Below are positions 1 to 22,775 of a stretch of 64,000 bases of DNA, piece after piece; within the stretch, counting starts at the first letter, position 1, and each line of letters starts with the position of its first letter. Position numbers and translations under genes: made by a program. The notes below the pieces were generated by a model. That model was not told the origin of the DNA, made no database searches, and saw nothing but the letters and a program-made list of their open reading frames with translations. The DNA is taken from assembly GCF_020567425.1 (NCBI RefSeq), contig NZ_JAJCVJ010000004.1, positions 1 to 64,000 on the forward strand. Reading direction: 5' to 3'. Source of the stretch: Salinirubrum litoreum. Lineage in GTDB: Archaea > Halobacteriota > Halobacteria > Halobacteriales > Haloferacaceae.

Positions 1-966
1 ACGAACGAAGGCCCGAAGCTCGACCACAAGCCACAGAACGCCATCGAGTGGTACGTCAAAATCCCGCACCACGACGACTACCACCTCTGGTTGCCCGCAC
101 AACCGAATCCCGAACAGCGGGAGTGGTTGGAAGCGTTGCACGCAGGAGACGCGAAGATGGGCGAATGTCGGTTGTTTCACCGTGACGGTGAGTGGTACTT
201 CCACATCGTCGCCACACGAGACGTGGAGGAACGAGAAACCAGTTCGACGGAGACGCCGATTGGGGTAGACATCGGGGAAGCCTCTTTGTTAACGGTGTGT
301 CACCGTGACGAGCGCGGCTCCCCGACTGCACCCAACCTCTGGAACACAGAAGGCAAGGCGATTCGACAACTCCGTGAAACGTACTTCACGGCGGCTCGAC
401 GCCTTCAGCAACGCGGAAGCGAACGAATCGCTGAGTCCTACGGCGATGAGTTGTGGCGACACATCGACCACATCCTCCACACGGTCACGTCGGAGGTCGT
501 CGCCTACGCCGACCAATTCGAGAACCCCATTCTGGTTCTGGAAGACTTGACGCACATCCGTGAGAACATGGACTACGGCGCGTTCATGAACCGCCGCCTT
601 CACGGATGGGGCTTTGCGAAGATGCACGCACAGATTCGCTACAAGGCGACTGAGAAGGGGATTCGTGTGGAGACGGTGAATCCTGCGTACACCTCGAAGA
701 CGTGTCACTGTTGCGGAGCACAGGGCTACCGTCCGACGCAGGCGACGTTCACGTGTTCTAACTCGAGGTGTTGGGTTTCGGAGTACCACGCAGACGTGAA
801 CGCCGCGCTCAACATCGCAGACCGCTACCTCAGCGGAGAGAGCCATTCAAGAGAACACACGAGTGGCGATGACTCGGCTGAGGACGGGGGGCATTTGACC
901 GCCCCACAAGACAGCCAAGCCGATGCTGACACCCAGCAAGAGACGCTTGGAACGTATGCGTCTTGA
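1..966 (+). CDS. tnpB: RNA-guided nuclease TnpB (IS200/IS605 OrfB), 5' end outside window
   Basis: The frame is open from base 1, so the gene starts upstream. The visible part has the RuvC-like triad: Asp in IGVDIGEA, Glu in LVLEDLTHIREN and Asp in HADVNAALN. A zinc ribbon lies before the last motif (CHCCG, then CSNSRC). TnpB is an accessory nuclease of IS200/IS605-type elements, guided by an RNA made from the element's right end. No TnpA transposase is visible here. The hairpin-rich right end follows directly, and the element abuts a truncated ATPase gene. It is probably mobile only with a TnpA in trans. Confidence 0.93.
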   Translation, partial: TNEGPKLDHKPQNAIEWYVKIPHHDDYHLWLPAQPNPEQREWLEALHAGDAKMGECRLFHRDGEWYFHIVATRDVEERETSSTETPIGVDIGEASLLTVCHRDERGSPTAPNLWNTEGKAIRQLRETYFTAARRLQQRGSERIAESYGDELWRHIDHILHTVTSEVVAYADQFENPILVLEDLTHIRENMDYGAFMNRRLHGWGFAKMHAQIRYKATEKGIRVETVNPAYTSKTCHCCGAQGYRPTQATFTCSNSRCWVSEYHADVNAALNIADRYLSGESHSREHTSGDDSAEDGGHLTAPQDSQADADTQQETLGTYAS

Positions 967-1037
967 AAGCTTAGGGCCGCGCTCGGCCTGAAATCCCATG
1001 GTGGGATTCCCGCGACTTTAGACGCGGGAGGAGGTCA
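967..1037 (+). mobile_element. TnpB element right end / omega-RNA-like scaffold
   Basis: The 70 bases after the tnpB stop hold three consecutive hairpins: a GGCCG/CGGCC stem, an AATCCCA/TGGGATT stem and a CCGCG/CGCGG stem around an ACTTTAGA loop. They end in GGGAGGAGGTCAA. This is the usual layout of the right end of haloarchaeal IS1341-type elements, where the 3' part of the guide RNA is made. The guide would be read from the flank starting near 1038. The exact end is inferred from where ATPase-like sequence begins on the other strand. Confidence 0.7.
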
Positions 1038-1094
1038 ATCGTAGAGTTCCCGGAGACGTGAGAGTTCCTCACTCCGGTTGACGAAGTCCGGCAT
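1035..1094 (-). pseudogene. Archaeal ATPase gene, only the first 19 codons left
   Basis: Reading left from ATG at 1094 gives MPDFVNRSEELSRLRELYD and then a stop that lies inside the TnpB right end. Phe-Val-Asn-Arg plus a Glu-Leu-rich helix is the usual N-terminus of the archaeal MoxR/STAND-like ATPase family (Arch_ATPase), just before the Walker A loop. A purine-rich AAAGGAG sits upstream. The rest of the gene is missing, so the TnpB element inserted in it or a deletion ended there. The family call rests on only 19 residues. Confidence 0.6.
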
Positions 1095-1404: not shown

Positions 1405-1683
1405 CTATTCGTGGCGTGCCCGTTCAAGTCGCACCCGTCGCAGGTGCTTACAGCCGTTCTCAGGGTGGCGTTTCCGCCAGTCCGGACAGGTACACGCCTC
1501 CGCGCCCAGATGTACGAAGTAGGTGTTCCCACTCTCAGAGTACACTTCGTAGGCGAACCGGCCGCAAGACCGGAGCGTCATCTGCTCGGTCAACGCACGG
1601 TCGGTGCGTGGGTCCATCGGGTCGAGTCCGGTAGCCCGGACTGCATCTCTCGGTCGTCGCTGGTGTGGTGTCGTCGTCGACAT
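1405..1683 (-). CDS. SWIM zinc-finger protein
   Basis: A 92-residue protein with a C-terminal SWIM signature: CTC, a spacer PDWRKRHPENG, then CKHL (CxC...CxH). SWIM domains bind zinc and usually mediate contacts with DNA or protein. I chose ATG at 1683 over an upstream ATG because a paired-hairpin element (1689-1722), also found before the TFB gene, ends five bases upstream of it. Small free-standing SWIM proteins are common on haloarchaeal plasmids. A DNA-processing or regulatory role is inferred. Confidence 0.75.
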   Translation of the reverse strand: MSTTTPHQRRPRDAVRATGLDPMDPRTDRALTEQMTLRSCGRFAYEVYSESGNTYFVHLGAEACTCPDWRKRHPENGCKHLRRVRLERARHE

Positions 1684-1688
1684 GATCT

Positions 1689-1722
1689 CGCGGGAGTTCC
1701 CCCGCACCCCGGAGGGGGCGAA
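1689..1722 (-). promoter_or_regulatory. Paired hairpin upstream of the SWIM gene
   Basis: On the minus strand the order is TTCGCCCC, then stem one (CCCC/GGGG around TCC), TGC, then stem two (GCGGG/CCCGC around GGAACT), ending five bases before the ATG. The same arrangement is found at 4321-4351 before the TFB gene. It could be an RNA structure in the 5' leader or a single-strand DNA fold. Function is unknown. Confidence 0.5.
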
Positions 1723-1886
1723 AAACAGCTGGTGTGTTCGGAGCATTGACGAAGTAAATCCGTCTCAATGGTGTTGCTGACGTCCACTGTTGGCGACCCC
1801 GATGGGTAGCTACTGCCCGCCAATCGAGGGAGTCCCCGACCAGAGGACTGATTACGTCTCTTAGCACACAATTACAGTAGATTACA

Positions 1887-2249
1887 ATGCCCGTCGATTT
1901 CGAGAGTTACCATCCCAATGACCTTCCGAACGAAGGGACGAACGGGCGGCAGATCCTGGAATATCTCGCACAGCACCCCGAACTCGGCTTCACACCGAGC
2001 GAGCTTGCCGACGAACTCGGAATCCCTCGAGGAAGTGTTGGAACGACGCTGAGTCGACTCGAAGAGCGAGGACTCGTCCGACATAAAGGAGAGTACTGGG
2101 CGATCAACATCGAGGCGTACAACGCCCAAACAGCCAGCAAAGTTGGCCTTCGGGCAGTTGCTGAGCAGTTCGAGGGCGATCACTACGATATGAATCCCGA
2201 CTGGGACGCTGGGCTCTCAGATGTCGATGCTGAAGCGAGTGACAACTGA
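1887..2249 (+). CDS. Winged-helix DNA-binding protein, probable antitoxin/regulator
   Basis: A 120-residue acidic protein. Residues about 20-75 form a MarR/LrpA-like winged helix: GRQILEYLAQHPELGFTPSELADELG, a recognition helix IPRGSVGTTLSRLEERG, and a wing ending KGEYWAI. Its stop overlaps the next start as TGATG, so the two genes are probably co-translated. The partner resembles a MazF/PemK toxin, so this is best read as the cognate antitoxin and autoregulator. The partner is truncated, so the pair may no longer be a working module. Confidence 0.75.
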   Translation: MPVDFESYHPNDLPNEGTNGRQILEYLAQHPELGFTPSELADELGIPRGSVGTTLSRLEERGLVRHKGEYWAINIEAYNAQTASKVGLRAVAEQFEGDHYDMNPDWDAGLSDVDAEASDN

Positions 2250-2383
2250 TGCTGAAGCGTGGCAGTGTCGTCGTCGCCGCGGACCCATACGGGAATACTT
2301 CTCGACGGCCGTACCTCATAGTGAGTGACGAGTCGCACCCGTTTGCAGGTGAACAGTACATCGCCGCCGGGATCAGTCGTTAG
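2249..2383 (+). pseudogene. MazF/PemK-like toxin, truncated to 44 residues
   Basis: ATG at 2249 overlaps the stop of the upstream winged-helix gene. The product begins MLKRGSVVVAADPYGNTSRR, followed by PYLIVSDESHPF, matching the N-terminal strands of haloarchaeal PemK/MazF-type toxins. Those are normally about 110-140 residues; this one stops after AAGISR. Its last 11 bases overlap the end of the convergent ArdC gene. The toxin was probably cut at a recombination junction. An inactive product is inferred from length only. Confidence 0.6.
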
Positions 2384-3323
2384 CCTTCCTGTCGATCTGT
2401 TCGATCAGTTCCCGCGCAGTCACAGCGATCACCTCACAGCGATCAGTGACCGAGACATTCTCGTCGTGTGTCCACGCAGAGAGATACCATCTTGACCCAA
2501 CCGTATCCAGACCTGAGTGCCGTCCAACGATGGCTGCCGTCGCCTCTGCATCGAGTTCGAAGGCGGCTGCCTGCTGTGCGTCTACGGGAACCTCGGGGTG
2601 GAGTCGGGCGTGTGCGAGTTCGTGTAAGAACGTCCGAGCGAGATCCGCAGTATTCTCACGATTTCGGAGATCAATTCGCTCCTCTGTCGTCCCATAGGCA
2701 CCCCATGCCGAGCCGTGCGGCCACTCCGACTCGTCAATGATCTGAACCGGGATGTCCCAGTCATCGGCGATCTGGTGGAGGGCTTCCACCAGCCAGTCCG
2801 CGTTACCGTGAGCCTCTCGCCGCAGTTCGGGCAGTTGCTCGCCCTCGGTCTGGGAGATATCGAACACCGCAACAGAGCGAAAGCCGACGACTTTCTGTGG
2901 CCACTCTTCAGTCGGGGCCTGCTCATCGCAGTCGCCGTGACCCTGGACTGAGTCATCACAGGTGGGACACACCCGCGCTCGAATGGGTGCACGGATCCAG
3001 ATCGCCTGCTCGCCAGACTGGACCTGTCGATCGAGGTCTTGCCAGGCTCTGTAGCCGGCGACGTGAGTCGCCTCTGGGCACTGTCTTCGGATCAGAATCG
3101 AGTTGCGAAACGAGTAATCGTGAAACTGTGCCTGCACGTCGAGCCATTCGGCGAACTGCTCGCTTGCCGTTGCTTCCTCAACGTCCTGTTCGAGTTCCTC
3201 GATCCATCGGTTGATCGTCTCTCGCAGGAGGTCGTCTCTCCGTTCCCGATCTCGGCAGTGCTCCCGGAACTCGTCCGTGTCACTCGGGACACCGACCTGT
3301 TTCGCCGACTTCTCTGTTGGCAT
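2373..3323 (-). CDS. ArdC-type antirestriction protein (ssDNA-binding domain plus M78 peptidase)
   Basis: 316 residues. The N-terminal half matches the ArdC N-terminal single-strand DNA-binding domain: a helical start, WLDVQAQFHDYSFRNSILI and AGYRAWQDLDRQVQSGEQAI. A small insertion carries CPTC and a further Cys/His pair, a possible extra zinc site. The C-terminal part has HELAHARLH at about residues 236-244, the HExxH motif of ImmA/IrrE (M78) peptidases. ArdC-type proteins protect incoming plasmid DNA from restriction. A strong hairpin lies four bases upstream of the ATG. It is close to the TFB and secretion genes and on the same strand. Confidence 0.85.
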   Translation of the reverse strand: MPTEKSAKQVGVPSDTDEFREHCRDRERRDDLLRETINRWIEELEQDVEEATASEQFAEWLDVQAQFHDYSFRNSILIRRQCPEATHVAGYRAWQDLDRQVQSGEQAIWIRAPIRARVCPTCDDSVQGHGDCDEQAPTEEWPQKVVGFRSVAVFDISQTEGEQLPELRREAHGNADWLVEALHQIADDWDIPVQIIDESEWPHGSAWGAYGTTEERIDLRNRENTADLARTFLHELAHARLHPEVPVDAQQAAAFELDAEATAAIVGRHSGLDTVGSRWYLSAWTHDENVSVTDRCEVIAVTARELIEQIDRKAND

Positions 3324-3327
3324 CTAT

Positions 3328-3351
3328 TGCGCCTCCGCCCGCCGAGGCGCA
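3328..3351 (-). promoter_or_regulatory. 8-bp-stem hairpin just upstream of the ArdC gene
   Basis: TGCGCCTC (3328-3335) and GAGGCGCA (3344-3351) form a perfect inverted repeat with an eight-base GC-rich loop, ending four bases before the ATG. In mRNA it would hide the start region. In single-stranded transferred DNA it would form a stable hairpin. Its role is unknown. Confidence 0.5.
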
Positions 3352-3368
3352 TAGAAAATCTAGGGTGC

Positions 3369-4301
3369 TCACTCAGAGCCGACGAGGTCACGCAAGTCGT
3401 AGTACCGCTTCCGTAACGTCACTACCGTCACACCTGCTGCGGCTGCAATATCCGACTGCGTGGCATTCTGCAGCCGCTCGGTACCCGCAAGGTACAACGC
3501 AGCACCCGCCACACCGGCTGGGTTCTTGCCCGTCGCGATGCCCGAATCCAGTGCGAGTGAGACGAGTTCTGACGCTCTGGACCGCACCACAGGAGAGGCA
3601 TCCATCTCACCCAGCAGTCGCGACAGGTACAGGTGCGGACTCACTGGCTCGACCGCGAGACCGAGTTCGACGTTCAACACGCCGTAGCTGAACCGCACGT
3701 CGTGTTCGGTGACCGATGAACCAGCTGCGATCTCGTCGGTCGTTCGGAGGACGTGCTGGCGGCGACACGCAGCATACACCGCACCGGCGACCATCCCGTC
3801 GATGGTTCGGCCCTGCAGGAGGTTTTCGCGGTAGGCACGGCGGTACAGCACACTCGCCTCTTCGTGGACTGCCCTCGGGAGTTCGAGAGCGGAGACGAGC
3901 CGTGCCATCTCAGAGAGTGCCCGGAGCAGGTTCTGTTCGCGTTTCGAGGTCGTGACTGCTCGCCGGTCGTGCGTCCGCATCCGGGCGATCCGCCGCCGCT
4001 TACGTGAGGAGAGTGGATTACCGTGGGCGTCACCACGCCAGCCGATCTGACTCGACACGCCGCGGTCGAACATCGTCGGTGTCGTCGGTGCACCCACACG
4101 CGAACGAGTCCTCGTCTCTTCAGCGTCGAACGCACGCCACTCTGCACCCCGGTCAAGATAGTCTTCGGCGATGACGAGTCCGCACTGGGTACACGTCGTC
4201 TCGCCACGCAGGGTCGCCGGTGGGCTACCACACTCCGGGCAGTCGTCGCTCAGGTCGTCCGTCTCGCCGCATCGCTCAGGTGTCGGTAGTCTCGTGGTCA
4301 T
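3369..4301 (-). CDS. tfb: Transcription initiation factor B (TFB) encoded on the element
   Basis: 310 residues from ATG 4301. A zinc ribbon near the N-terminus (CPECG, then CTQCG) is followed by a B-reader/linker region (RGAEWRAFD) and two cyclin folds; the first contains RTIDGMVAGAVYAACRR and the second GKNPAGVAGAALYLAG. TFB bridges TBP and RNA polymerase in archaea. Haloarchaea have many TFB paralogues, and one on a mobile element could redirect transcription to the element's own promoters. The in-frame 53-codon upstream extension is rejected because it runs through the paired-hairpin element and is rich in Arg and Pro. Confidence 0.93.
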   Translation of the reverse strand: MTTRLPTPERCGETDDLSDDCPECGSPPATLRGETTCTQCGLVIAEDYLDRGAEWRAFDAEETRTRSRVGAPTTPTMFDRGVSSQIGWRGDAHGNPLSSRKRRRIARMRTHDRRAVTTSKREQNLLRALSEMARLVSALELPRAVHEEASVLYRRAYRENLLQGRTIDGMVAGAVYAACRRQHVLRTTDEIAAGSSVTEHDVRFSYGVLNVELGLAVEPVSPHLYLSRLLGEMDASPVVRSRASELVSLALDSGIATGKNPAGVAGAALYLAGTERLQNATQSDIAAAAGVTVVTLRKRYYDLRDLVGSE

Positions 4302-4320
4302 TGGTCTGCACGGGACCTCA

Positions 4321-4351
4321 CGTGGGGAGCCCCGCACCCGCAGGGGGCGAA
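4321..4351 (-). promoter_or_regulatory. Paired hairpin upstream of the TFB gene
   Basis: Minus-strand order: TTCGCCCCC, TGC loop, GGG, TGC, then GGGG-CT-CCCC and ACG. It matches the element before the SWIM gene at 1689-1722 in sequence and layout. It ends 19 bases upstream of the TFB start. Confidence 0.5.
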
Positions 4352-4486
4352 CAAACAGGCGGACGGTGCGTCTCGCAGAACTCGAGATGAATACTCGTGA
4401 CTGAAGCGCAACCGGGAGCGCTGGAATGACCACAGGGGGTGGACGAGGTGGATTTTTCAATCACCCACACAAGATGCCGAACAACG

Positions 4487-4945
4487 ATGCCAGAGTCGGA
4501 GTCGATTACACCGTATCTCGAAGAGAACGGCCCGACCCCACGCTCGGAGTTACCCGTTCGCTTAGAGAGCTATCATCGAGAACAGGGTGTCTGGTTGTTC
4601 CGTCTCACTAGTGGTGTTGGCGACACTCAACCAGCAGGCGGCCAGAGCGTCAAAATCGCGTATCTTCCAGAGCACAAAAAGGAGGACGTCTGCCGCTGCT
4701 TCTTCGAGGCGAATCCTGAGTTCGTCGACGCACAGACGTACAGGTCCGCCAGCAGACAACTGTCGAATTACGGACGCGAGTGGATCGATGCCTGTCGTCC
4801 CGTCATCGCCGAGTTCTTCGAGTCGCCATCAGCGTCCGACGAGTCGGGGTTCGACACAGGAGAAACGGAAACCTGCTCGTTCTGTGGCGAACCTGTCCCT
4901 AAAGGTGGACTACCCGCACACCTCCAGGAGTGTTCAGAGCGGTAG
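4487..4945 (+). CDS. Hypothetical protein with C-terminal C2HC-type zinc finger
   Basis: 152 residues from ATG 4487, divergent from the TFB gene. The middle (SVKIAYLPEHKKEDVCRCFFEAN) is not recognised. The C-terminus CSFCGEPVPKGGLPAHLQEC has the spacing of a BED/C2HC-like zinc knuckle. Start chosen because the upstream extension falls in the divergent promoter. The 3' end overlaps the VirB4 gene end by 12 bases, convergently. Possibly a DNA-binding accessory protein of the element. Confidence 0.7.
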   Translation: MPESESITPYLEENGPTPRSELPVRLESYHREQGVWLFRLTSGVGDTQPAGGQSVKIAYLPEHKKEDVCRCFFEANPEFVDAQTYRSASRQLSNYGREWIDACRPVIAEFFESPSASDESGFDTGETETCSFCGEPVPKGGLPAHLQECSER

Positions 4946-7900
4946 GTGCTCACTCTGTCCGTCTGGGTGCGTCGCCACATCGCCCACCTGTGGATCGAAC
5001 TCGATCACCTTCCACTCCCCAGCCAGTAACCGCACTTCGATCCCGTACCACTCACCATCGACACCAACCAGCGCCTCACCGTACCCACGCACTGGATCAC
5101 CGGGCAGTGCTTCCTGGACGAATCGCATCTGCGCAGGATTCAGCCCGAACTCCTCTGCCCACTGTGCGTCCATCCCGTCTAGTCGATGGAACTGCTTCAC
5201 CGCACACTGATCTAAGATCGCCTCCGCCTCGGGACGGTCGAAGAACTCATCGACGGTCTGCGTCACCAACCGAATCGACAGATCGTGGTGGCGATGATGC
5301 CGAAACACCGTCTCCAGAAAGGACAACGACGCTGCGTCCTTCAGAACGTATCGCGCTTCGTCGATCACGAACACGACTTCTCGGTCGGTCTCCTTCGCCA
5401 GCTCGTACACCTGCGAGATGAGCAGTTGCATCAGGAGGCCGGTGTCCTCGCCGATGGAGCCCTCCTGCTGGCCCAAGTCGAGATACAGCACCGACTCCTC
5501 ACGCAGATCAAACGCGGTCGGCTCGCCGATGTTCGCGTACCGCTCGCCCTCGTCGAACACTCGCAGTTGGTAGACGAGCGTCTCGGCGTGTGTGACCAGC
5601 TGTTCTGCTTCTGCAGCAACTGCACGGGCGGTGAACGCCTCGGGGTCGTCGATCATGTCCGAGAGGACGTCGAGAAGGTCACGCAGGGTGGGACTCTCCG
5701 CACCGTGCGTCTCGATGTCTTCGGTGATGCCTGCCCGCTTGTACGTCTCGATCAGCGCGAGTTCGAGTGTCACACGACGCTCGCCGAGCGTCACACCCCG
5801 CTGGGCGAAGAAGTTCGTCAAGAAGGACAAGACGTCGTTCAGCTTCTCGGCGAACGGACTGGCGTCTGCACCCATCGTCCGCTGGACGCTCGCTGGGACC
5901 GCCCGAATGTCGAGCGGGTTCACACCGAGTGTCCCACCGACCGTCACGCGCTGGCCGCCCAGTGCCTCGGCGACGCTCGCCCAGTTTCCGAGCGGCTCCA
6001 AGATCACACCGAGGCGATCCTCGTCTGCCAATAGTGTCCGCAAGAAGGCCTGTTTCGCGGCCACAGATTTACCCGACCCGGGATCACCCACCCGGAACGT
6101 GGCATACCCGTTCGCCCGGGCGAACGGATCGACGACAACCGGCGTACCTGTCCGACTCTCCGTCCCGAGTTCGATTCCCTCGGATTCGAGCATCGTCGGC
6201 CGGTGCGGAGACGAGAGCAGTGCACCGACTGCTCCGCCGAGTGCGACGACCGACCGGTCCGCGACGTCCGGACCAACCGGTGCAGCCGACTGGACGGCGC
6301 GATCCTGTGCACAGATGGCCGTCTTCGCCGTCAACCCAGCAGGCTGTTCACGCAGCCGTTGGCGCACCCGTCGCACCGACTCCCTGAGTGTCTCTCTGTC
6401 GTCTGCCCGGACGGTGACGTAGATCGACTGGTGGAACACACGCGTCCCACCCTCGACTGCGGCGTACGTCTGGGCGGCCCGCTGACTCCGTTCTGCGAGA
6501 TACCCACCGCGGACCGTCTCTTCGAGACGGGCGTCTGCTTCGAGGTCGTCCGCTTGCCGCTGGAGTTCTCGCCGAGCGCGTTCGTGATCGATCGGCTCCC
6601 AATTAATGGTGAGTGCGTACGACACGTCCGAGAGTTCGAACAGGCCCGACAGCGAACCGTCTTTCAGCAGATCTGGATAGCCCTCGATAGTGAGCGTCTG
6701 TGTCCACGTCTCGTCGAGCCGTGCTGTGCGCGTGCCCCACTCGATCCCTGCAGGCGCGATGTCGTCAGCGTGTGACTCGCCGAGTTCCGTGAGGTGCTCG
6801 TATTCGGCCTCTGCGGGCGTCCGGTCCTCGTCCGCCTCCACGGCCGCCCCGCCATCCCCCCGTGCGACAGCGCGAGCCGTGCGGCGTTCTATCGTCCCGT
6901 CTGGCGCAGCCGGTGTCTGAGCTGCTCGTGAGGCTCGACCGACCGCCGTGCGGGTTCGGACAGACCGGTCTGCAGGCTCACCACCCCAGAACTCGACACA
7001 CAGTTCGTAGAGTTCGACAGTGGAGAGTCGACGGGCACGCCAGCCGGGGATGTGGCCGAACAGTTCGGTCTGGAGGGTCTCGACTCTCGCATCGAGTTTC
7101 TCTGCCATCCGCTCACGGCGTTCGAGCGGGGAGAGCGGTTCCCGGCCACGGAGGACCGTCCGGGCGAGCACACCGAGGAGTGGCACCCCTGCGAGTCGCT
7201 CTGCTGGTGTGCCCTCCTGTGCGTCTCGCTCGTACACCTCGACTGGTGAGACAGACACCCCGAGGAAGTACTGTGGGTGCGTACTCTGTGCGAGTGCATC
7301 CGATCGTTCCTGGCGATATTCGTCTGTGAGGACTCGTCGTGTTCGGGCTGCGGTGAACGCCCCACTCGACGTCCCCGGATCGGCCGACCCGACCACCGTC
7401 TCGACCGGGAACGGCCGCGTTCGGACGTGCAGTTTCAGTGGGAACTCCGCCTCGGCGTTCACGAACTCGGTGATCGTCGACTCTACACTCGCCCAGTCGG
7501 GGTGCAGCGCAAACCCCATCGGTGTGGGTTCGATCTCGACCATGGCCTCGAGTGTCCCGTCTGTGCGTTCGACCGCTGCGAGACCGGGCCACGCACGGCC
7601 GATGTTCGTCACCTCCTGTGTCGATTCTGCGGGAACGAAGGGGACACGGCCGGTCCCACGCTCGGGCTCGTCTGCGAGCGAGAGCTTCGGTCGGCGCAGG
7701 TAGTACCGACCGAGCGTCCTGACCCACGCACCGGCAGTGAGGTGCGGTGGTGCGGCGAAAACGAGGGCAATCGAGATGAACAGCCCGACGAGTACTGCAG
7801 GGATGACGAGTCCCCGTGCACCGAAGATGCTCACGAGGAACAGGCCGGCCACCGGCCCGACAGCCAGCACCTGTGCGTCACCACTGCGAAGCCCGAAGAT

Positions 7901-7999
7901 GGGGACACGGCGCTCCGGTGTGAGCGTCGCCAGAGTCCGGCGAGTTGCGGCCGTCGCTTCTGGGTCCGAATCCGCCTGTGGTCGAGTCGTCCGAGTCAC
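4934..7999 (-). CDS. virB4: VirB4/TraC-type conjugation ATPase with N-terminal membrane segments
   Basis: 1021 residues, starting with a GTG that overlaps the stop of the upstream membrane-protein gene. Residues about 44-85 hold two hydrophobic segments, as in VirB3-VirB4 or PrgI-like fusions. Walker A (VGDPGSGKSVAAKQ) is near 640 and Walker B (EVVFVIDEARY) near 878, followed by the VirB4 C-terminal motif LVTQTVDEFF. VirB4 ATPases energise type IV secretion pili and DNA export. The gene is translationally coupled to the VirB6-like gene. The C-terminus (about 40 residues after the ATPase core) is acidic and variable. Confidence 0.9.
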   Translation of the reverse strand: MTRTTRPQADSDPEATAATRRTLATLTPERRVPIFGLRSGDAQVLAVGPVAGLFLVSIFGARGLVIPAVLVGLFISIALVFAAPPHLTAGAWVRTLGRYYLRRPKLSLADEPERGTGRVPFVPAESTQEVTNIGRAWPGLAAVERTDGTLEAMVEIEPTPMGFALHPDWASVESTITEFVNAEAEFPLKLHVRTRPFPVETVVGSADPGTSSGAFTAARTRRVLTDEYRQERSDALAQSTHPQYFLGVSVSPVEVYERDAQEGTPAERLAGVPLLGVLARTVLRGREPLSPLERRERMAEKLDARVETLQTELFGHIPGWRARRLSTVELYELCVEFWGGEPADRSVRTRTAVGRASRAAQTPAAPDGTIERRTARAVARGDGGAAVEADEDRTPAEAEYEHLTELGESHADDIAPAGIEWGTRTARLDETWTQTLTIEGYPDLLKDGSLSGLFELSDVSYALTINWEPIDHERARRELQRQADDLEADARLEETVRGGYLAERSQRAAQTYAAVEGGTRVFHQSIYVTVRADDRETLRESVRRVRQRLREQPAGLTAKTAICAQDRAVQSAAPVGPDVADRSVVALGGAVGALLSSPHRPTMLESEGIELGTESRTGTPVVVDPFARANGYATFRVGDPGSGKSVAAKQAFLRTLLADEDRLGVILEPLGNWASVAEALGGQRVTVGGTLGVNPLDIRAVPASVQRTMGADASPFAEKLNDVLSFLTNFFAQRGVTLGERRVTLELALIETYKRAGITEDIETHGAESPTLRDLLDVLSDMIDDPEAFTARAVAAEAEQLVTHAETLVYQLRVFDEGERYANIGEPTAFDLREESVLYLDLGQQEGSIGEDTGLLMQLLISQVYELAKETDREVVFVIDEARYVLKDAASLSFLETVFRHHRHHDLSIRLVTQTVDEFFDRPEAEAILDQCAVKQFHRLDGMDAQWAEEFGLNPAQMRFVQEALPGDPVRGYGEALVGVDGEWYGIEVRLLAGEWKVIEFDPQVGDVATHPDGQSEHLPL

Positions 8000-9087
8000 T
8001 ACTGGACCCCCGGATCGTTCTCTGTTCTGCGGTACGCGGGGATGCCCTGCTGGCCGTGTGCATCCGTCACCGGTGGGTCACCACGGAATCGCTCACCGAG
8101 TCGGTTCCCCGCCGCGTAGCCCACACCTGCACGGGCACCGAACCGTCCTGCTGTCGCCGCCGCACCCGGCCCGGCGACACTGGCGAGGCCGACGACAGCA
8201 CCGACTGTCGCCACACCTGCAGTGGTCGCTCCGATCACCTTCGCGGTGAGTGGCGAGGCGTCTTTGAACAGTCGCCACGTCACGAGCAGGCCGAGGACAG
8301 GCAGTGCGACCGCGACGAGCGTCTGGACGTACGCACTGACGAACAGCAGGTCGCCGAAGGCATCGGCCTGGACGAACAGGTCGAAGGCTTTGAACAGGAG
8401 TGCCAGTGGCAGTGGGAGCACGAGAAGCGGGACGAATCGTCGGGCGAGTCCGCGTGCGAGTGCCGACAGGACGGGCACGTTCGAGAAGCCGACCGCGAGG
8501 AGCAGGGGCATCCCCAGCAGGTAGACGTACAACAGGACGTATCGAATGATGAGCAACGCTTCGAGTGCCCACATGGCGACTCCGCCGATGATCGCCAGTC
8601 CGAGTGCGAGGATCCAGTTCGTGACCGTTACCTGTGCAAAACCGACGAGTGTGTCGCCTATTGTCCCGAGGCTCGGGAGCAGTGCCACAGTCAGTCCGTT
8701 CACGAGATAGCAGGCGAGTGCGGCGAGCCAGTACCACGTGACTACGAGGATACCACCCGTCCAGATCGACCGCTGTGCGGCACGGGCCCGGTAGGCCCCT
8801 GTCACGTCGACGATTCTGACGAGTTGGTGGAGATAGAACGTGATCACTAACAGGAGCAGTGAGTACTGCATGATTTCTCCGCCGATCAGTGTATCGTAGA
8901 GGACATTCCACTGACCGCCAGATGGTGGCGTGAAGATGTCTTCGACAGAGCCACCCGGAACCGGCGTACCGAACAGGAGCCCCCCTAACTCCCGGTAGCC
9001 TTCCTCAAGACCACTTCTGAAAGTGGTCGATACCATGTCGATGATATCGGTGAACCACTTCACCCCTAAATCGATAAGATCGACCAC
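7999..9087 (-). CDS. Polytopic VirB6/TrbL-like membrane protein
   Basis: 362 residues with about eight hydrophobic segments (for example YSLLLLVITFYL, WILALGLAIIGGVAMWAL, LLVLPLPLALLF and GLLVTWRLF), then a Gly/Ala-rich C-terminal tail with GRFGARAGVGYAAGNRLG. Size, topology and position directly before virB4 match VirB6/TrbL channel components. Sequence similarity is not decisive by eye. The GTG start follows immediately after the TGA of the lipoprotein gene, so the four genes from 11711 leftwards look like one operon. Confidence 0.75.
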   Translation of the reverse strand: MVDLIDLGVKWFTDIIDMVSTTFRSGLEEGYRELGGLLFGTPVPGGSVEDIFTPPSGGQWNVLYDTLIGGEIMQYSLLLLVITFYLHQLVRIVDVTGAYRARAAQRSIWTGGILVVTWYWLAALACYLVNGLTVALLPSLGTIGDTLVGFAQVTVTNWILALGLAIIGGVAMWALEALLIIRYVLLYVYLLGMPLLLAVGFSNVPVLSALARGLARRFVPLLVLPLPLALLFKAFDLFVQADAFGDLLFVSAYVQTLVAVALPVLGLLVTWRLFKDASPLTAKVIGATTAGVATVGAVVGLASVAGPGAAATAGRFGARAGVGYAAGNRLGERFRGDPPVTDAHGQQGIPAYRRTENDPGVQ

Positions 9088-9882
9088 TCACCCCACCTCA
9101 ATCGTAACATCACACTCATCCGCGTCCGTCGACGGACGGTAAAGAACAGGGAACTCAGTAGTGAGAGACTCAGCCCCTACGCTCGGAATCAGTGATACGA
9201 TGGCTGTTCCACTGAACTCACTCTCACAGTCAATCGTCCTGCTTGCTGCTAACGAGAATGGAATTGTCGAGCTGAACAGTGTAATCGTTTCTCCAGATGC
9301 GATGAGAACAGGCTCTGTTTCGCCGAATATTCCTGTCGTGCGATCTGAAGCAGATTCGATTCTCGTGGTCGGGTACGGAACATCTCCGTTGAACAGCAAC
9401 CTTCTGACGTATTCAGGCCCAGTCCCACGATTTTCTACGGAAACAAGGGATTCGATGTCTCGAACACTACCAAGTCCCTCTGGCATCCGTTCGGGCTGAT
9501 TCCGGCCGACATCGAATTCCACGATTCGCAGGTCCGGCATGATCTCCAGTCGCGTCTCGGCGACCGTTGCACCGCCACTCGCCCCGACGATACGGAACTC
9601 CCCAGGCGTGTAGCGCTCATCCAGCCCGACATCGACGCGAGTCACACCGGCCGGGACGGGCCGCTCTGTCCAGAGGCGACCCTCCGGGTCGATCACGCTG
9701 ACCGACTCGACAGTGTCTGGGAGGACCTCGATCTGGATGGTCTCCCCCTCCACGGTCGCAGCGATTTCATTCGACCCACTGCCACCACTACTCGATCCAG
9801 CAGGTGAAACACCCTCACCAGTACAGCCGGCAAGCGCGGCCATCCCGATCCCAGCAAGGACCGTCCGTCGTGAGTACGTCAT
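9088..9882 (-). CDS. Tat-exported lipoprotein of the conjugation operon
   Basis: 264 residues from ATG 9882, which overlaps the stop of the upstream gene by four bases. The N-terminus SRRTVLAGIGMAALAGC is a twin-arginine signal with a haloarchaeal lipobox (Cys about residue 21), followed by a Ser/Gly-rich linker. The rest is beta-rich (VEVLPDTVESVSVIDPEG, RIVEFDVGRNQP) like CARDB/Ig-type folds. It probably sits outside the membrane as an anchored part of the pilus or mating apparatus; this is inferred from the operon. Confidence 0.8.
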   Translation of the reverse strand: MTYSRRTVLAGIGMAALAGCTGEGVSPAGSSSGGSGSNEIAATVEGETIQIEVLPDTVESVSVIDPEGRLWTERPVPAGVTRVDVGLDERYTPGEFRIVGASGGATVAETRLEIMPDLRIVEFDVGRNQPERMPEGLGSVRDIESLVSVENRGTGPEYVRRLLFNGDVPYPTTRIESASDRTTGIFGETEPVLIASGETITLFSSTIPFSLAASRTIDCESEFSGTAIVSLIPSVGAESLTTEFPVLYRPSTDADECDVTIEVG

Positions 9883-11711
9883 GGCCACCTCCGGAGTATC
9901 AGGCCGGCTCGCCACGCCAGAAAGCCCACAGCGAGGAACGGCACGGCCTGTCCGAGCGTTACGGCAAAGGCGGTCAGCCACCCGCCGAGTTCGGTCAATG
10001 GGTGTGCCCGCACGGTCGCTGTCGAGGCCGTATACGCTGGGTCGTGTGTCAGCCACGAGCCCGGTTCGTAGCGTGCCTCGTAGACGCCTGCTTCCGGGAC
10101 CTCCACGATCACCACGCCAGTATCGTTCGTCTGGACTGACTGCCCGGCGATCTCGATCGTTCCGTCACGATCCGGCCCCGTAATCCGGTCGTACCGTGGA
10201 TCCTCGACACCCAGATCGAGACCGATCGGCGTGTTATCACTCGCGTCTGTGAGTTCGAGGCGAACACGAAGCGGCTCCTCAGCGTCCTCGAGGACGGTCG
10301 CTGACAGTTCACTCTCGCGGAGTTCACGCACCGCCGCCGTGCTCGTCACGCCACGAGCCTCGACACCCGAGACGATCCCGGTCGCAACCACGGCTTGTGT
10401 CTCCGCAGTCTCGTTCGACGTCCCCACGCCGATCCGTGTGGCCACGCCGTACGAGGCGGTGTACGGCTCCGTGACGACACCGACGTTCACGTTCGGGTCC
10501 ATCGCCGATTCGGGTGAGGGCTGTTCGAGGCCCCACACCTGGACGATCTCCAACGTCGCGGGGTCGGTCACCCGCGGGCCAATCCGCGAGGGATACGCAT
10601 GGACCGCGACAGGTCGCTCCTCAGGGAGAGTCACACGCGAGTCAGCACCATCTACACTCCGAACGGAGAGTTCGTCCCACGTCTGGTCGCGAGCCGTGTA
10701 GAAGCGCCAGACGCCCCGCACTTCGGGGTCGTCACTCCCTTCGACCGAGAGCCCCTGCCACGGGGCCGAGTAGAACGTCGCCACGCCCCGGTCGCCGTCC
10801 GGGTACGTGACCGTCGACGCCGAGACGTTCAACTGGTAGAGTTCAGCGTTGACGTCGTCTTGAACCGTCAGTGTCTCCGTCAGGAGATCACTATCGACCG
10901 TCTCCCACGAACAGACTGTCTCGTTGCCCCACGGCCAGCAGACGCCTCGCTCACGGTACCGCTGCACGGTGACCGTGATGTCCGCTTCGACCGCAAGCGT
11001 GACTGGACCGCCCACTTCGTCAGTCAGGTCATACACTAACGACGGTGTCTGCCCGGTCGTCTCGTCAAGCAGAATCTCCTCACCGTCTCGCACGGCGGTC
11101 AGCCGCACGGACTCGACGCCGTGGTCCCGAACACGGAACACACGACGAGTCGCGTTCAGTCCGGGGTCACCGCTATCTTCGGGTTCGTGAACCCGGTAGT
11201 CGACGAGCGCCCGGACGGTGCCGTTCGGGGCGATGTGCCGCACTGGTTCGCCATCGTCTGCATGAACCCACGTCGTGGGGTGGACGCCAAAGACCGACAC
11301 GTGCGCGTCTTTCAGAAAGCGGTCGTTCGATAGTGTCGCATCTGCAGGTGCCACTGATTCTGTAGCACCGCCAGCCCGGACACGCTCGAACGCACCGGCA
11401 GACCAGTGGTGTGCCGTCTCCGGAGGCGTCGCGAAGGCGAAGTCGGAGAGTCGAGAAAGCGTCTCGGTGGCCGTCTCGTTCGTCACGTTCTCGAAGCTGA
11501 GTTGGTCGACGTCACCCGAGAAGAGCGTCGCCGTCTCGTTGCGAGTGAGTCCGTTCGTCGTGGGGTCGCCGACCTGTGCGGTCGCTCCAGTCTGGACCAC
11601 CGAGTCGACGGGATCCACAGACTTCACCGCGACCGTCCCGAGTGGCAGACTCACGAGTAAGCCGAGACAGACGCCGAGGCTCACCGTTTGCATCGCGAAA
11701 ATCCCCGTCAT
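9879..11711 (-). CDS. Large surface protein with N- and C-terminal membrane anchors
   Basis: 610 residues. A hydrophobic N-terminal signal or anchor (VSLGVCLGLLVSLPLGTVAV) and a C-terminal transmembrane helix (FAVTLGQAVPFLAVGFLAW) followed by Arg-rich residues flank a long acidic, beta-rich ectodomain. Several Asn-X-Thr/Ser sequons (NETAT, NVTNET, NATRR, NVSAS) suggest N-glycosylation. It fits an external structural or adhesion subunit of the conjugation machinery. I do not recognise the family. It lies between a pilin-sized protein and the Tat lipoprotein, three bases from the former. Confidence 0.75.
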   Translation of the reverse strand: MTGIFAMQTVSLGVCLGLLVSLPLGTVAVKSVDPVDSVVQTGATAQVGDPTTNGLTRNETATLFSGDVDQLSFENVTNETATETLSRLSDFAFATPPETAHHWSAGAFERVRAGGATESVAPADATLSNDRFLKDAHVSVFGVHPTTWVHADDGEPVRHIAPNGTVRALVDYRVHEPEDSGDPGLNATRRVFRVRDHGVESVRLTAVRDGEEILLDETTGQTPSLVYDLTDEVGGPVTLAVEADITVTVQRYRERGVCWPWGNETVCSWETVDSDLLTETLTVQDDVNAELYQLNVSASTVTYPDGDRGVATFYSAPWQGLSVEGSDDPEVRGVWRFYTARDQTWDELSVRSVDGADSRVTLPEERPVAVHAYPSRIGPRVTDPATLEIVQVWGLEQPSPESAMDPNVNVGVVTEPYTASYGVATRIGVGTSNETAETQAVVATGIVSGVEARGVTSTAAVRELRESELSATVLEDAEEPLRVRLELTDASDNTPIGLDLGVEDPRYDRITGPDRDGTIEIAGQSVQTNDTGVVIVEVPEAGVYEARYEPGSWLTHDPAYTASTATVRAHPLTELGGWLTAFAVTLGQAVPFLAVGFLAWRAGLILRRWP

Positions 11712-11714
11712 CGC

Positions 11715-12137
11715 TCAGAAGGGGATCAGATCGACGCAGTCTGCAAAGGGCAGACCGAGCGTTGGACCCATCACGGCAAGCAGGGGACCTGCGACGACTA
11801 ACATTGCCGCGCTCCGGTAGACCGTCCGTTTGTGAGCGTCGACGGACTCGCGACGTGGCCCGGTGATGACGAGCATCTGCATCAGGGTATCAGCGAAATA
11901 CATCACCACCGCGGCCATGATGCCGACGCCGACGATCAACAGGATCGCGCCTTCGACCAGCCCGGGAAGCGTGCCCGAGGTATCCTGACAGATAACGCTC
12001 TGTGCTGCTGCAGGCTGCGAGAAGAGCACTGATCCGATCGCGAGGAGACCGACTCCCCGCACCCAGCGGTGACCGGTAGTGCGCTCGTTTTGTTCTGTAG
12101 CGTTGCCACTGTCTGTGGTGGGGTCTTGTGGTTGCAT
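11715..12137 (-). CDS. Small two-to-three-helix membrane protein, VirB2/TrbC-like in layout
   Basis: 140 residues: a hydrophobic segment ending QPAAAQ (possible signal), then LVEGAILLIVGVGIMAAVVMYF and SAAMLVVAGPLLAVMGPTLG separated by a basic loop (GPRRESVDAHKR). Two cysteines outside the helices could pair. Signal plus two helices around a positive loop is the plan of VirB2/TrbC pilins. The family match is inferred from layout and position, not from sequence identity. It is the first gene of the secretion operon, after 262 bases of AT-rich DNA. Confidence 0.65.
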   Translation of the reverse strand: MQPQDPTTDSGNATEQNERTTGHRWVRGVGLLAIGSVLFSQPAAAQSVICQDTSGTLPGLVEGAILLIVGVGIMAAVVMYFADTLMQMLVITGPRRESVDAHKRTVYRSAAMLVVAGPLLAVMGPTLGLPFADCVDLIPF

Positions 12138-12399
12138 ATGGCTCGTCGCACCTTAACGCCCGATATCCAGAGTTCCGGGAGCTAACACGCGATTAAAGGC
12201 CGGAATGAGACATCGCATTAAATAGATTTCTGAAAATAGAATGGAGTAATTCATCCAGTAGATCCGTTCCATCACAGTAACAAACTGTAGGTAGTGTTAT
12301 TCCGGAAAAGTATTCAAATATACTTGAGATTCACTGACCCCGGCACTTACTCGTCCCGGTTCGAACCTCACAGAAACAACAAAATATCCGAGAGTGGTG

Positions 12400-13260
12400 C
12401 TATTCCCAGTAGCGTCCCCGTCCGGGGAAGGTGACACCCGACCAGCCAGTCACCGCGAGCGACACACTTCCTTCGTACCAGTTCTTCGCGGCCGCCCGAA
12501 TCCGCACGCGCTCTCCTTCTCGCACAGTGGGTTGGTTCGACCGTTTCCACGAGGTGACTTTCACCCGTCCCGTCTTGTCTTCTAACAGTCCGACCCACTG
12601 AATCGAGGGGTGTGATGGCGACCACAGCCGTTCGATCACGCCTTCCACACAGACCTCCCCTGCGTCCACCACGTCGAGTTCCCCGACAGGTACCACTCGT
12701 CCGGGCCGCTCGCGAAGCCGCTCTGCAACCGCCACGACCGCGCTCAGAAGACTCTGCCCCTCTGCAACGCGCTCGCCCAGTTCCCGTCCGATGGCTGCCC
12801 GACTCACGTCGTCGTACCGCCTGTGCAACCGCGCCGCCTCTCTGTTCACACCCGCTAACTCCTCGCGCTCCAACGTCTCTCGTGGATCGACGATCTCCGG
12901 ATCTGCCCACGGGTCGACACTCGCTCTCCGCGCTGCAAATGCCTCGCGCCGCTTTTCGTTCGCTACTTCAGTCACGTACCGCGCCGCACCTTCCCGACCC
13001 GGTTCCTGGCTCCGATCCGTCCGTGCCCGCGTCCGCTCGACTTCCGCCTCCCGACCGCACATCCGCTCGAACGCCTCCTGCGTCTGTCCGAACAGCCGTC
13101 CATCGGCCAGCTCCCGCTCGTCCGAATAATCGATCTTCGCCTGGATCTCTTGAGACACGCTCGCCCGGAACTCCACCGAGACACGCTCGAACTCCCACGC
13201 ATCGTCGGTCGTCTTCTCTCTCGTCGATACTGCTTTCTTGCCGCTCTTCGTACTACTCAT
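12400..13260 (-). CDS. OB-fold (RPA-like) nucleic-acid-binding protein
   Basis: 286 residues from ATG 13260. The N-terminal two thirds is helical and charged (many Glu/Arg) and includes DPWADPEIVDP. The C-terminal about 95 residues form an OB fold: VVDAGEVCVEGVIERLW, then IQWVGLLEDKTGRVKVTSW, VREGERVRIRAAAKNWYEG and VSLAVTGWSGV. This resembles haloarchaeal RPA/DNA-binding OB domains. It may coat single-stranded DNA during transfer or replication of the element. A GC-rich hairpin lies about 105 bases upstream of the ATG. Confidence 0.75.
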   Translation of the reverse strand: MSSTKSGKKAVSTREKTTDDAWEFERVSVEFRASVSQEIQAKIDYSDERELADGRLFGQTQEAFERMCGREAEVERTRARTDRSQEPGREGAARYVTEVANEKRREAFAARRASVDPWADPEIVDPRETLEREELAGVNREAARLHRRYDDVSRAAIGRELGERVAEGQSLLSAVVAVAERLRERPGRVVPVGELDVVDAGEVCVEGVIERLWSPSHPSIQWVGLLEDKTGRVKVTSWKRSNQPTVREGERVRIRAAAKNWYEGSVSLAVTGWSGVTFPGRGRYWE

Positions 13261-13363
13261 TGGAGTCCTAACTCCGAAGGCACTCACTCGGTGCCTTTCC
13301 AACACGACGACTCTCCAGCCGTCGCTCTCTCACTCGACCCAACTACATCAACACGGACACCGC

Positions 13364-13408
13364 CGCTCGCGCCTTCGGCGCGCCCCTCTGGGGCGCGAGC
13401 GGCGGGCC
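13364..13408 (-). promoter_or_regulatory. GC-rich nested hairpin upstream of the OB-fold gene
   Basis: CGCTCGCGCC and GGGCGCGAGCGG can pair across a loop that itself holds GCGCCCC/GGGGCGC. It lies about 105 bases upstream of the OB-fold gene start. The rest of 13261-13600 shows no supported gene; GC is high and the frames there are shadows or decayed TnpB-flank sequence. Confidence 0.4.
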
Positions 13409-13589: not shown

Positions 13590-13640
13590 CACACAGATGC
13601 AAGGAGGAAGCCCACGGCTTTAGCCGTGGGAGGAATCTGA
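13590..13640 (+). mobile_element. Orphan right end of a TnpB element
   Basis: CCCACGGC-TTTA-GCCGTGGG (13611-13630) followed by AGGAATC is the terminal hairpin of a haloarchaeal IS1341-type right end, on the plus strand. No tnpB body precedes it; the preceding 100 bases resemble only the variable C-terminal tail of such genes. It is a remnant of an older element next to the intact tnpB at 13733. Confidence 0.6.
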
Positions 13641-13732
13641 CAAGGCTTGAAACAACCCATGAGCAACAGCACCCCGACTCCCCCACGCCATTCATAGAAT
13701 TATATAACACTACTCCGTACGTGAAGTTGCAG

Positions 13733-14990
<1,258 letters not shown>

Positions 14991-15110
14991 CTGATGGGTG
15001 AAGCGTGAACGATACAGCGGGTGTATGCAGCAAACGCGAGAAGTCCACGAGGATGGGCAGAAGTTCGTAATGTGGGAAAATTATTGTACTTGCCCACCGT
15101 AGATGGGAGT

Positions 15111-15341
15111 ATGTCCGAAGCGACGCTGGACGCTCGCGGACGCCTCACGCTGCCGAAAGAGGTTCGAGAGCGGTACGGCGACCACTACCACATCGTCCAA
15201 CTGCACGATGGTATCAAGCTGATTCCAATCGATGAGAATCCACTCGATGCTCTCCGTTCTGAGTTCGCGGACGTTGAGAAGACAGCGGAAGAGCTCCGCC
15301 AGGACGCACGTACCGCAGCACTGGACGAGGCGGGACGCTGA
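15111..15341 (+). CDS. AbrB-type antitoxin
   Basis: 76 residues: ATLDARGRLTLPKEVRERYG is a SpoVT/AbrB swapped-hairpin DNA-binding domain, followed by an acidic helical C-terminus (DVEKTAEELRQDAR) that would wrap the toxin. Start at ATG 15111; an AAAATTATT box about 30 bases upstream suggests a leaderless transcript. Its stop is directly followed by the ATG of the PIN toxin. It probably neutralises the toxin and represses the operon. Confidence 0.9.
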   Translation: MSEATLDARGRLTLPKEVRERYGDHYHIVQLHDGIKLIPIDENPLDALRSEFADVEKTAEELRQDARTAALDEAGR

Positions 15342-15716
15342 ATGTACGCGGAGACAGACTTCCTGCTGGCACTCATCAAGGACGAAGACTGGCTCGGGGA
15401 CGCCGCAGAGGCCGTCTATCGCGAGCATTCGGACGAGCTGTGGACGTCTCAGTTCACGCTCATCGAACTTCTCATGGTTGCATACCGAGAAGACCGAGAT
15501 ACGGAACGAGTCGTCACAAACGCGGCTGCCCTATTGGACGTTCGTGGTGACGTGGATACCGTCGTCGCAGCTGCAAGCTACGTCGAAGACCACGGATTCA
15601 CTCCCTTCGATGCGCTCCACCTCGTCGAATCTGATGGCGACACGATCGTTTCGAGTGATGAGGCGTACGAATCGGTTGCTCCACGGCTCGACCTGAAGAC
15701 AGTCCAAGACGAGTGA
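15342..15716 (+). CDS. VapC-like PIN-domain toxin
   Basis: 124 residues. PIN-type ribonucleases use a cluster of acidic residues. Visible here are Asp in YAETDFLLAL, Glu in FTLIELLMVAYR, Asp in FTPFDALHL and Asp in IVSSDEAYE. It starts immediately after the antitoxin stop. PIN toxins usually cleave tRNA or rRNA; the target here is unknown. All key acidic residues and normal length suggest a working toxin, probably stabilising the element. Confidence 0.9.
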   Translation: MYAETDFLLALIKDEDWLGDAAEAVYREHSDELWTSQFTLIELLMVAYREDRDTERVVTNAAALLDVRGDVDTVVAAASYVEDHGFTPFDALHLVESDGDTIVSSDEAYESVAPRLDLKTVQDE

Positions 15717-15903
15717 CAGCCTTCCACCGGAGGTATCGTATACGTGCTTCCTCCTTGCAACTGTGTGATCCAGACAGCAGGTGTGCTGAGTAGCACACAA
15801 ACCACTCGCTAGCTTCCTGTCGAACAGTACCGAGACCCTCTCTACACGACCGTCTCTCGTTTCTGGCGATTCCTGTGACAGAGCCCCTGACAGGTGCAGA
15901 TAC

Positions 15904-15914
15904 ACCTATATCAC
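15904..15914 (+). promoter_or_regulatory. TATA-like box for the VirD4 gene
   Basis: ACCTATATCAC centred about 30 bases before GTG 15939. That is the spacing for a haloarchaeal leaderless transcript, and it decides the GTG start. An in-frame ATG at 15894 lies upstream of this box and would not be transcribed from it. Confidence 0.5.
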
Positions 15915-15938
15915 TTTCATCCAGACCCACACGCTATC

Positions 15939-21855: not shown

Positions 21856-21862
21856 CCCTCGA

Positions 21863-22636: not shown

Positions 22637-22724
22637 GGTGAACACCGCAACGAAGCACGACGCGTCCGCTTTATTCGGGTCTATATACGGAAGGATAATC
22701 CCTGTAGATGCAGGCCGTATCAAT

Positions 22725-22743: not shown

Positions 22744-22775
22744 CTCTCGGTGACGATCGATCATTGACCGGAGGG

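What the first reader, a model, noticed from the sequence alone, without database searches (positions are those of the whole stretch)
1405..13408. Hairpins before ArdC, TFB, SWIM and OB-fold genes: an archaeal leading-region analogue?
In bacterial conjugation, leading-region genes (anti-restriction, ssDNA-binding) are expressed in the recipient from hairpins that act as promoters on single-stranded DNA (Frpo-type sequences). Here ArdC, an OB-fold protein, a private TFB and a SWIM protein lie on one strand, each with a strong hairpin four to about 105 bases before the start. A dedicated TFB would help early expression. This is a hypothesis; no such system is established in archaea as far as I know.
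Basis: inference. Interest (0 to 1): 0.68.

Follow-up and report, generated by a model that had tools for sequence, protein, structure and literature searches.

The report
Shared hairpin promoter-leader on archaeal plasmids

Summary
The window starts a 179-kb haloarchaeal contig that carries a T4SS (TrbL_3, E 8e-109). The hairpins before SWIM, TFB and ArdC are members of one conserved element; the hairpin before the OB-fold gene is something else. The element: a T-rich tract (TTTT[AT]TC) with a BRE-like 5' flank; an inverted repeat (strand A, loop, GGG[TC]G, strand C); a second stem-loop (C:D); and an ATG mostly 36-60 nt from the tract. A covariance model finds it in 218 of 391 haloarchaeal genomes and none outside that order. 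It precedes TFB, ArdC, SWIM, DUF6166, DUF6610 and a few other families, up to 5 copies per element, on the strand of the T4SS in 45 of 50 elements. TrbL_3 occurs in 45/50 motif-bearing but only 5/32 motif-free genomes. Stems C:D and A:C both covary (0/10,000 permutations each). No Rfam match; no description in the literature held. Against a Frpo-type single-strand promoter: the TATA-like tract is unpaired in ssDNA, wobble asymmetry puts C:D on the sense strand, and BRE/TATA geometry matches ordinary haloarchaeal promoters. Most likely it is a dedicated promoter plus 5'-leader defining a putative establishment regulon. Start site, timing of expression and regulator are untested.

The parts
4302..4356 (-). 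TFB promoter-leader element: T-tract 4355-4350, strand A 4348-4343, GGGTGC 4339-4334, strand C 4333-4330, strand D about 4319-4311, ATG at 4301
   Evidence: R1 match 54.5 bits; exact pattern match; sibling copy at C2:1465618 before another TFB
1684..1727 (-). SWIM promoter-leader element: T-tract 1725-1721, strand A 1719-1714, GGGTGC 1709-1704, strand C 1703-1699, strand D 1696-1690, ATG at 1683
   Evidence: R1 match 40.8 bits; sibling leader 88% identical while the 80 nt upstream are 59%
3324..3359 (-). ArdC element, divergent short form: T-tract 3358-3351, stem 3351-3344 / 3335-3328, loop with GGGCG, ATG at 3323; no second stem-loop
   Evidence: fold z -3.1; descriptor scan; same layout in ArdC leaders of other haloarchaea and in the sibling element L225
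1405..1683 (-). SWIM zinc-finger protein, 92 aa
   Evidence: CTCPDWRKRHPENGCKHL motif in the translation; relatives match PF04434
2373..3323 (-). ArdC-like anti-restriction protein, 316 aa
   Evidence: PF08401 5.6e-8
3369..4301 (-). element-borne TFB, 310 aa
   Evidence: PF00382 1.2e-33, PF08271 1e-11
4934..7999 (-). VirB4/TraC-like ATPase of the T4SS (weak profile match)
   Evidence: AAA_10 1.4e-4, below cut-off; position next to TrbL_3
7999..9087 (-). TrbL/VirB6-like T4SS protein
   Evidence: PF19590 8e-109
12400..13260 (-). OB-fold, replication-factor-A-like protein; not preceded by the element
   Evidence: NCBIfam NF005553 7e-12; no R1 match upstream in homologues
13365..13408 (-). separate three-armed cruciform upstream of the OB gene, not part of the family
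   Evidence: fold, conserved in sibling element

Best explanation
The hairpins before SWIM, TFB and ArdC are copies of a dedicated promoter-plus-leader module carried by haloarchaeal conjugative elements. SHOWN: the shared anatomy, its spread, its association with T4SS elements and a recurrent gene set, its strand bias, and covarying stems. INFERRED: the T-tract with its C-RRRR flank is a BRE/TATA pair (possibly read by the element's own TFB); transcription starts at or a few nt after strand C; the inverted repeat between TATA and start, with its constant GGG[TC]G core, is the site through which expression is controlled; and the mRNA begins with or soon reaches a stem-loop about 10 nt before AUG that affects translation or stability. 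Each gene has its own copy, so ArdC, TFB, SWIM and the others can be switched on together. By analogy with pLS20/p576 and F/ColIb, the most likely purpose is fast, transient expression on arrival in a recipient (an establishment regulon), with loss of a donor-side repressor as the simplest trigger.
For: Common element. Spread: R1 in 218/391 Halobacteria genomes, 62/86 genera; hits among 295 phylum genomes only in the same order; other TFB loci of the genome have none. Gene set: 144 instances dominated by TFB (31), DUF6166 (32), a 126-aa family (23), SWIM, ArdC, DUF6610; 18 of 30 ArdC loci chosen without regard to the motif have an R1 match (E<1, about half of them weak) just upstream on the sense strand. 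T4SS: TrbL_3 in 45/50 motif-bearing against 5/32 motif-free genomes; same strand in 45/50 elements, p 4e-9. Covariation: C:D structure 129 two-sided cells vs 60 +/- 7 shuffled; alignment-free permutation A:C z -5.7, C:D z -9.6, A:D control +0.3. Promoter: T-tract nearly invariant, C at -8 and purines at -7..-4, same spacing as the BRE/TATA profile of 270 ordinary genes (C -37, A -36..-33, T -29..-26 from ATG); no other AT-rich box at -60..-12 in 18/18 tightly packed cases; tract to strand C is 22-25 nt in 133/138. In the window ArdC the tract starts 35 nt before ATG, fitting a nearly leaderless transcript.
Against: No transcription start is known for any copy. If the start lies after strand C, the covariation of A:C and of outer C:D pairs cannot be explained by RNA and needs a DNA or ssDNA role. 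The inverted repeat differs between genes of one element (CCCC/GGGG before TFB, GCGCCTC/GAGGCGC before ArdC), which is odd for one repressor; only GGG[TC]G is common. Five elements have the motif opposite to the T4SS strand. R1 was seeded by a regular expression and its E-values are rough. Establishment function rests on ArdC and on analogy.
Confidence: 0.58

Rival explanations
1. RNA leader switch: transcription starts upstream of the T-tract (or reads through from the preceding gene), the whole element is 5'-UTR or intercistronic RNA, and strand C pairs either with A or with D, giving two exclusive folds that control translation.
For: Both A:C and C:D covary while A:D does not; in L128:6557 strand C (GGGUGC) is complementary to both A (GCACCC) and D (GCACCC); 174 G.U against 12 A.C; 125/144 copies follow a same-strand gene, median gap 52 nt.
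Against: No promoter-like box upstream in most cases, including divergent gene pairs; BRE/TATA-like signal at the tract itself; window ArdC hairpin fills exactly the TATA-to-ATG gap; the C:D fold is usually more stable by computation.
Confidence: 0.22
2. Single-strand (Frpo/ssi-like) promoter: the hairpins form on the transferred strand and recruit TBP/TFB/RNA polymerase before the second strand is made.
For: Multi-copy hairpin element on one strand ahead of ArdC and other candidate establishment genes on T4SS elements; own TFB in the regulon; A:C covariation extends into a region that may not be transcribed.
Against: TATA-like tract unpaired in ssDNA: mean pairing 0.39 on the template strand, paired in 3/36; stems lack TATA/BRE; wobble asymmetry favours the sense strand; ordinary BRE/TATA geometry. 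oriT and transfer direction unknown.
Confidence: 0.08
3. Plain double-stranded promoters with an operator: the inverted repeats are binding sites of an element-coded repressor or zinc-finger protein, and folding is incidental.
For: Inverted repeat sits between TATA-like tract and predicted start; constant GGG[TC]G core; p576 precedent with Reg operators (PMC8708921).
Against: Half-site spacing (loop 3-8 nt) and half-site sequence vary between copies of one element; variable inner arms of C:D track the gene, keep pairing and show G.U bias.
Confidence: 0.1
4. Chance GC-rich hairpins with no common function.
For: Three of four hairpins do not beat shuffles by energy.
Against: Everything comparative: pattern 68 vs about 18 for the reversed pattern in 170 genomes, R1 spread, covariation, sibling leaders 79-88% identical against 51-59% just upstream.
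Confidence: 0.02

Closest known systems
Frpo / ssi single-strand promoters of F and ColIb-P9 leading regions (PMC11541004; Masai & Arai 1997 cited there)
   Same: Several hairpin-forming copies on one strand of a conjugative element, each ahead of establishment-type genes including anti-restriction genes
   Different: Frpo stems contain -35/-10 and work as duplex promoters on ssDNA; here the TATA-like tract is outside the stems and unpaired, and pairing bias is on the sense strand; the element is about 60 nt, archaeal, with BRE/TATA spacing
EGeRS1 of pLS20-family Bacillus plasmids (PMC8708921)
   Same: Conserved inverted-repeat sequence in several copies, upstream of ardC and of other establishment operons, defining a regulon; mechanism open
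   Different: 400-600 bp, precedes operons, no sigma-A promoter found and blocks read-through; here about 60 nt, one copy per gene, with an apparent promoter
EGeRS2 / Reg-operator promoters of p576 (PMC8708921)
   Same: Ordinary promoters with repeated sites upstream of ardC and other establishment genes; a model for zygotic induction
   Different: Site is a defined RHH-repressor operator; here no repressor is known and the repeat sequence varies between genes
Haloarchaeal BRE/TATA promoters (PMC4983044)
   Same: TTWT-type tract with C and purines 4-8 nt upstream
   Different: BRE is G-rich rather than CGAAA, and the TATA-to-start region is a fixed GC-rich inverted repeat

Membership tests
Frpo/ssi single-strand promoter | core promoter elements lie in the duplex of the folded single strand | tested here: not met
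   T-tract paired in 3/36 template-strand and 5/36 sense-strand DNA folds, less than flanks
Frpo/ssi single-strand promoter | fold conserved on the transferred template strand | tested here: not met
   G.U 174 vs A.C 12 on the sense strand, i.e. mismatches on the template strand; strand of transfer itself unknown
Frpo/ssi single-strand promoter | located in the leading region, expressed before second-strand synthesis | not testable with these tools
   oriT and relaxase not identified; no expression data
Frpo/ssi single-strand promoter | copies upstream of anti-restriction/SSB-type genes on one strand | tested here: met
   ArdC, TFB, SWIM etc., same strand within elements and as T4SS in 45/50; the OB/RPA-like gene lacks it
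Establishment-gene regulatory sequence (EGeRS-like) | conserved sequence in several copies per element upstream of ardC and other genes | tested here: met
   up to 5 copies per element, ArdC among targets
Establishment-gene regulatory sequence (EGeRS-like) | transient expression after entry into the recipient | not testable with these tools
   needs a mating time course
Haloarchaeal BRE/TATA promoter | T-rich box with BRE 8 nt upstream of its start | tested here: met
   C at -8 (p 1e-4), purines -7..-4
Haloarchaeal BRE/TATA promoter | transcription start 27-29 nt after the start of the T-box | not testable with these tools
   no start-site data; predicted near strand C
Known Rfam RNA family | match to any of 4227 families | tested here: not met
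   no match at these leaders up to E 1
Riboswitch-like RNA with exclusive folds | covarying exclusive stems in the transcript | tested here: inconclusive
   A:C and C:D both covary, but whether A and C are transcribed is unknown

The most novel reading that the evidence does not exclude
An archaeal establishment regulon in which hairpins extruded at the promoter (in incoming single-stranded or supercoiled DNA) and an element-coded TFB together drive immediate expression of ArdC and companion genes in the recipient: to my knowledge the first single-strand- or hairpin-dependent promoter system in archaea.
Probability: 0.1. Interest if true: 0.92.

Novelty: new variant of a known kind. Interest (0 to 1): 0.7.

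Why it matters
How archaeal conjugative elements protect themselves on arrival, and which genes do it, is almost unexplored. The element gives a sequence tag, present in over half of the haloarchaeal genomes sampled, that picks out a set of mostly unknown genes (DUF6166, DUF6610, DUF7389, a 126-aa family, SWIM proteins) as candidate establishment or anti-defence functions, in the way that the ardC upstream sequence did in pLS20. It also puts element-borne TFBs, which are numerous in haloarchaea, into a concrete circuit: TFB genes are among the main targets of the element. All of this can be tested in genetically tractable Haloferax hosts.

Tried and rejected
Folding energy as evidence: rejected, three of four hairpins are no better than shuffles. 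OB hairpin as a member: rejected. Simple dimer operator: disfavoured by variable spacing and by half-sites that differ within an element. Archaeal U-tract terminator: not tested directly; disfavoured because many tracts are TTTATC or TTGTTC with short T runs. Frpo: see tests. Alternative pairing register AC2: no support. The viral-contig scan gave one match, so viruses are not the main carriers. A 79-record genome scan included Streptomyces, WOR-3, Anaerolinea and others, taken as chance or unrelated repeats. Literature searches found no description of the element; the library holds only open-licence papers.

Full report
WHAT IS THERE. The window is the first 64 kb of a 179-kb contig (C4) of a haloarchaeal genome of 4.06 Mb. 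On the minus strand lie a SWIM-type protein (1405-1683), ArdC (2373-3323), TFB (3369-4301), a VirB4-like ATPase (4934-7999; weak profile match), a TrbL/VirB6-like protein (7999-9087; PF19590 8e-109), further membrane/secreted proteins and an OB-fold, RPA-like protein (12400-13260). The region is flanked by two IS605-type tnpB genes. So this is the transfer module of a conjugative element.

THE SHARED ELEMENT. The SWIM and TFB leaders share TTTNTTC-GCCCCCT-N-GGG(G)TGCGGGG. In the same genome the only third exact match stands before another TFB on C2. In 170 genomes of the family the pattern occurs 68 times against about 18 for the reversed pattern, and real matches almost always lie 16-40 nt before an ATG. 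A covariance model R1 built from 29 copies finds the element in 218 of 391 Halobacteria genomes (62 of 86 genera) and, among 295 genomes of the phylum, only in the same order. In the home genome the copies sit on C2, C4 and C5, in clusters near a TFB; TFB loci elsewhere on C1 and C2 have none.

TARGET GENES. 144 instances give a narrow gene set: TFB, DUF6166 proteins, a 126-aa family (MATLQAATTSTGAL...), several SWIM families, ArdC, DUF6610, DUF7389-like and a few others. Some elements have four or five copies, all on one strand, each before its own gene (L077, L044, L043, L125). Taking ArdC loci without regard to the motif, 18 of 30 have an R1 match directly upstream on the sense strand, many weak.

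LINK TO CONJUGATION. TrbL_3 occurs in 45 of 50 motif-bearing genomes and in 5 of 32 motif-free ones (the 50 were picked as rich in the motif). On shared contigs the motif is on the strand of the nearest TrbL_3 in 45 of 50 elements (p 4e-9), often 17-44 kb downstream. In G042:C6 and G172:C2 two T4SS on opposite strands each have a motif cluster on the matching strand.

ANATOMY AND COVARIATION. From 5' to 3': T-tract; strand A; loop; GGG[TC]G[C/A/GA]; strand C; variable loop; strand D; about 10 nt; ATG. In a 117-sequence alignment stem C:D has 6 of 9 pairs with two-sided changes, and the structure has 129 such cells against 60 +/- 7 in shuffles; sliding the partner by one to three columns destroys it. 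Alignment-free, matched A:C and C:D strands pair better than permuted ones (z -5.7 and -9.6, none of 10,000 permutations), while A:D does not. ArdC leaders of other genera show A:C in full exchange: GACC/GGUC, GCGCC/GGCGC, GGUUCC/GGAACC; the window's ArdC has TGCGCCTC/GAGGCGCA with GGGCG in the loop and belongs here. Between the window and its sibling element on C2 the three leaders are 79-88% identical while the DNA just upstream is 51-59%. The OB hairpin is a different structure.

MECHANISM. G.U outnumbers A.C 174 to 12 in stem C:D (also in the freely variable inner pairs), so this stem acts on the sense strand, i.e. most simply in RNA. The T-tract is nearly invariant; upstream of it only C at -8 and purines at -7..-4 are conserved, which is the spacing of BRE and TATA in 270 ordinary genes from the same loci and fits the published haloarchaeal TTWT/CGAAA promoter (PMC4983044). 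No other AT-rich box lies at -60..-12 in 18 of 18 tightly packed copies and in most others. Distance from tract to strand C is 22-25 nt in 133 of 138. I therefore read the tract as a TATA box and expect transcription to start near strand C, giving an mRNA that begins with or near the C:D stem-loop. What A:C does is not settled: if it is not transcribed, it must matter as DNA. This tension is the main weakness of the best explanation, and the reason for keeping the RNA-switch rival at 0.22.

THE SINGLE-STRAND PROMOTER IDEA. Frpo works because its promoter elements lie in a fold that mimics duplex DNA (PMC11541004). Here the tract is outside the stems and less paired than its surroundings on either ssDNA strand, the stems are nearly all GC, and the wobble bias is on the wrong strand for a template-strand hairpin. 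The layout is Frpo-like; the mechanism, on present evidence, is not. The nearest published parallel in logic is EGeRS1/EGeRS2 of the pLS20 family, where the sequence upstream of ardC marked the whole establishment regulon (PMC8708921).

STATUS OF CLAIMS. Shown: family, spread, gene set, T4SS and strand association, covariation. Inferred: promoter identity of the T-tract, start site, control through the inverted repeat, establishment role. Not testable here: start sites, timing, oriT, bound proteins. Rfam has no match and the open literature held here does not describe it.

Noticed in passing
window 13365-13408(-): Three-armed GC-rich cruciform (outer stem CCGCCGCTCGC/GCGAGCGGCGG with two inner hairpins) 105 nt before the OB gene, kept in the sibling element on C2; possibly a replication or transfer site.
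   Followed up: partly
window 91-1050 and 13597-14986: Two IS605-type tnpB genes flank the region; their ends give weak Rfam hits (HgcC 972-1050; Acido-Lenti-1 at 13597 and 14955).
   Followed up: no
window 15072-15716: Small gene pair that looks like a VapBC-type toxin-antitoxin (AbrB-like plus PIN-like) next to the HerA/DUF87-like ORF 15894-19706.
   Followed up: no
window 20940-25000: Several adjacent ORFs on the minus strand that look like CAAX/CPBP-type membrane proteins.
   Followed up: no
G000:C2:1445000-1474004 (L126, L042, L280): Sibling element in the same genome: OB protein 94% identical, own TFB, ArdC and SWIM each with the element.
   Followed up: partly
G165:C4, G030:C1, G026:C11, G036:C34, G257:C2: Five elements where the motif cluster is on the strand opposite to TrbL_3; perhaps a subtype with a rearranged transfer module.
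   Followed up: no
L128:6557-6611, L070:4971, L079:9226: Leaders in which strand C is complementary to both A and D; best candidates for a test of exclusive folds.
   Followed up: partly
L066:7425: The element precedes an HNH-like endonuclease gene (161 aa).
   Followed up: no
L173, L174, L200, L213, L217, L219, L222: An Anaerolinea MAG has the pattern near the ends of seven contigs, looking like an unrelated repeat.
   Followed up: no
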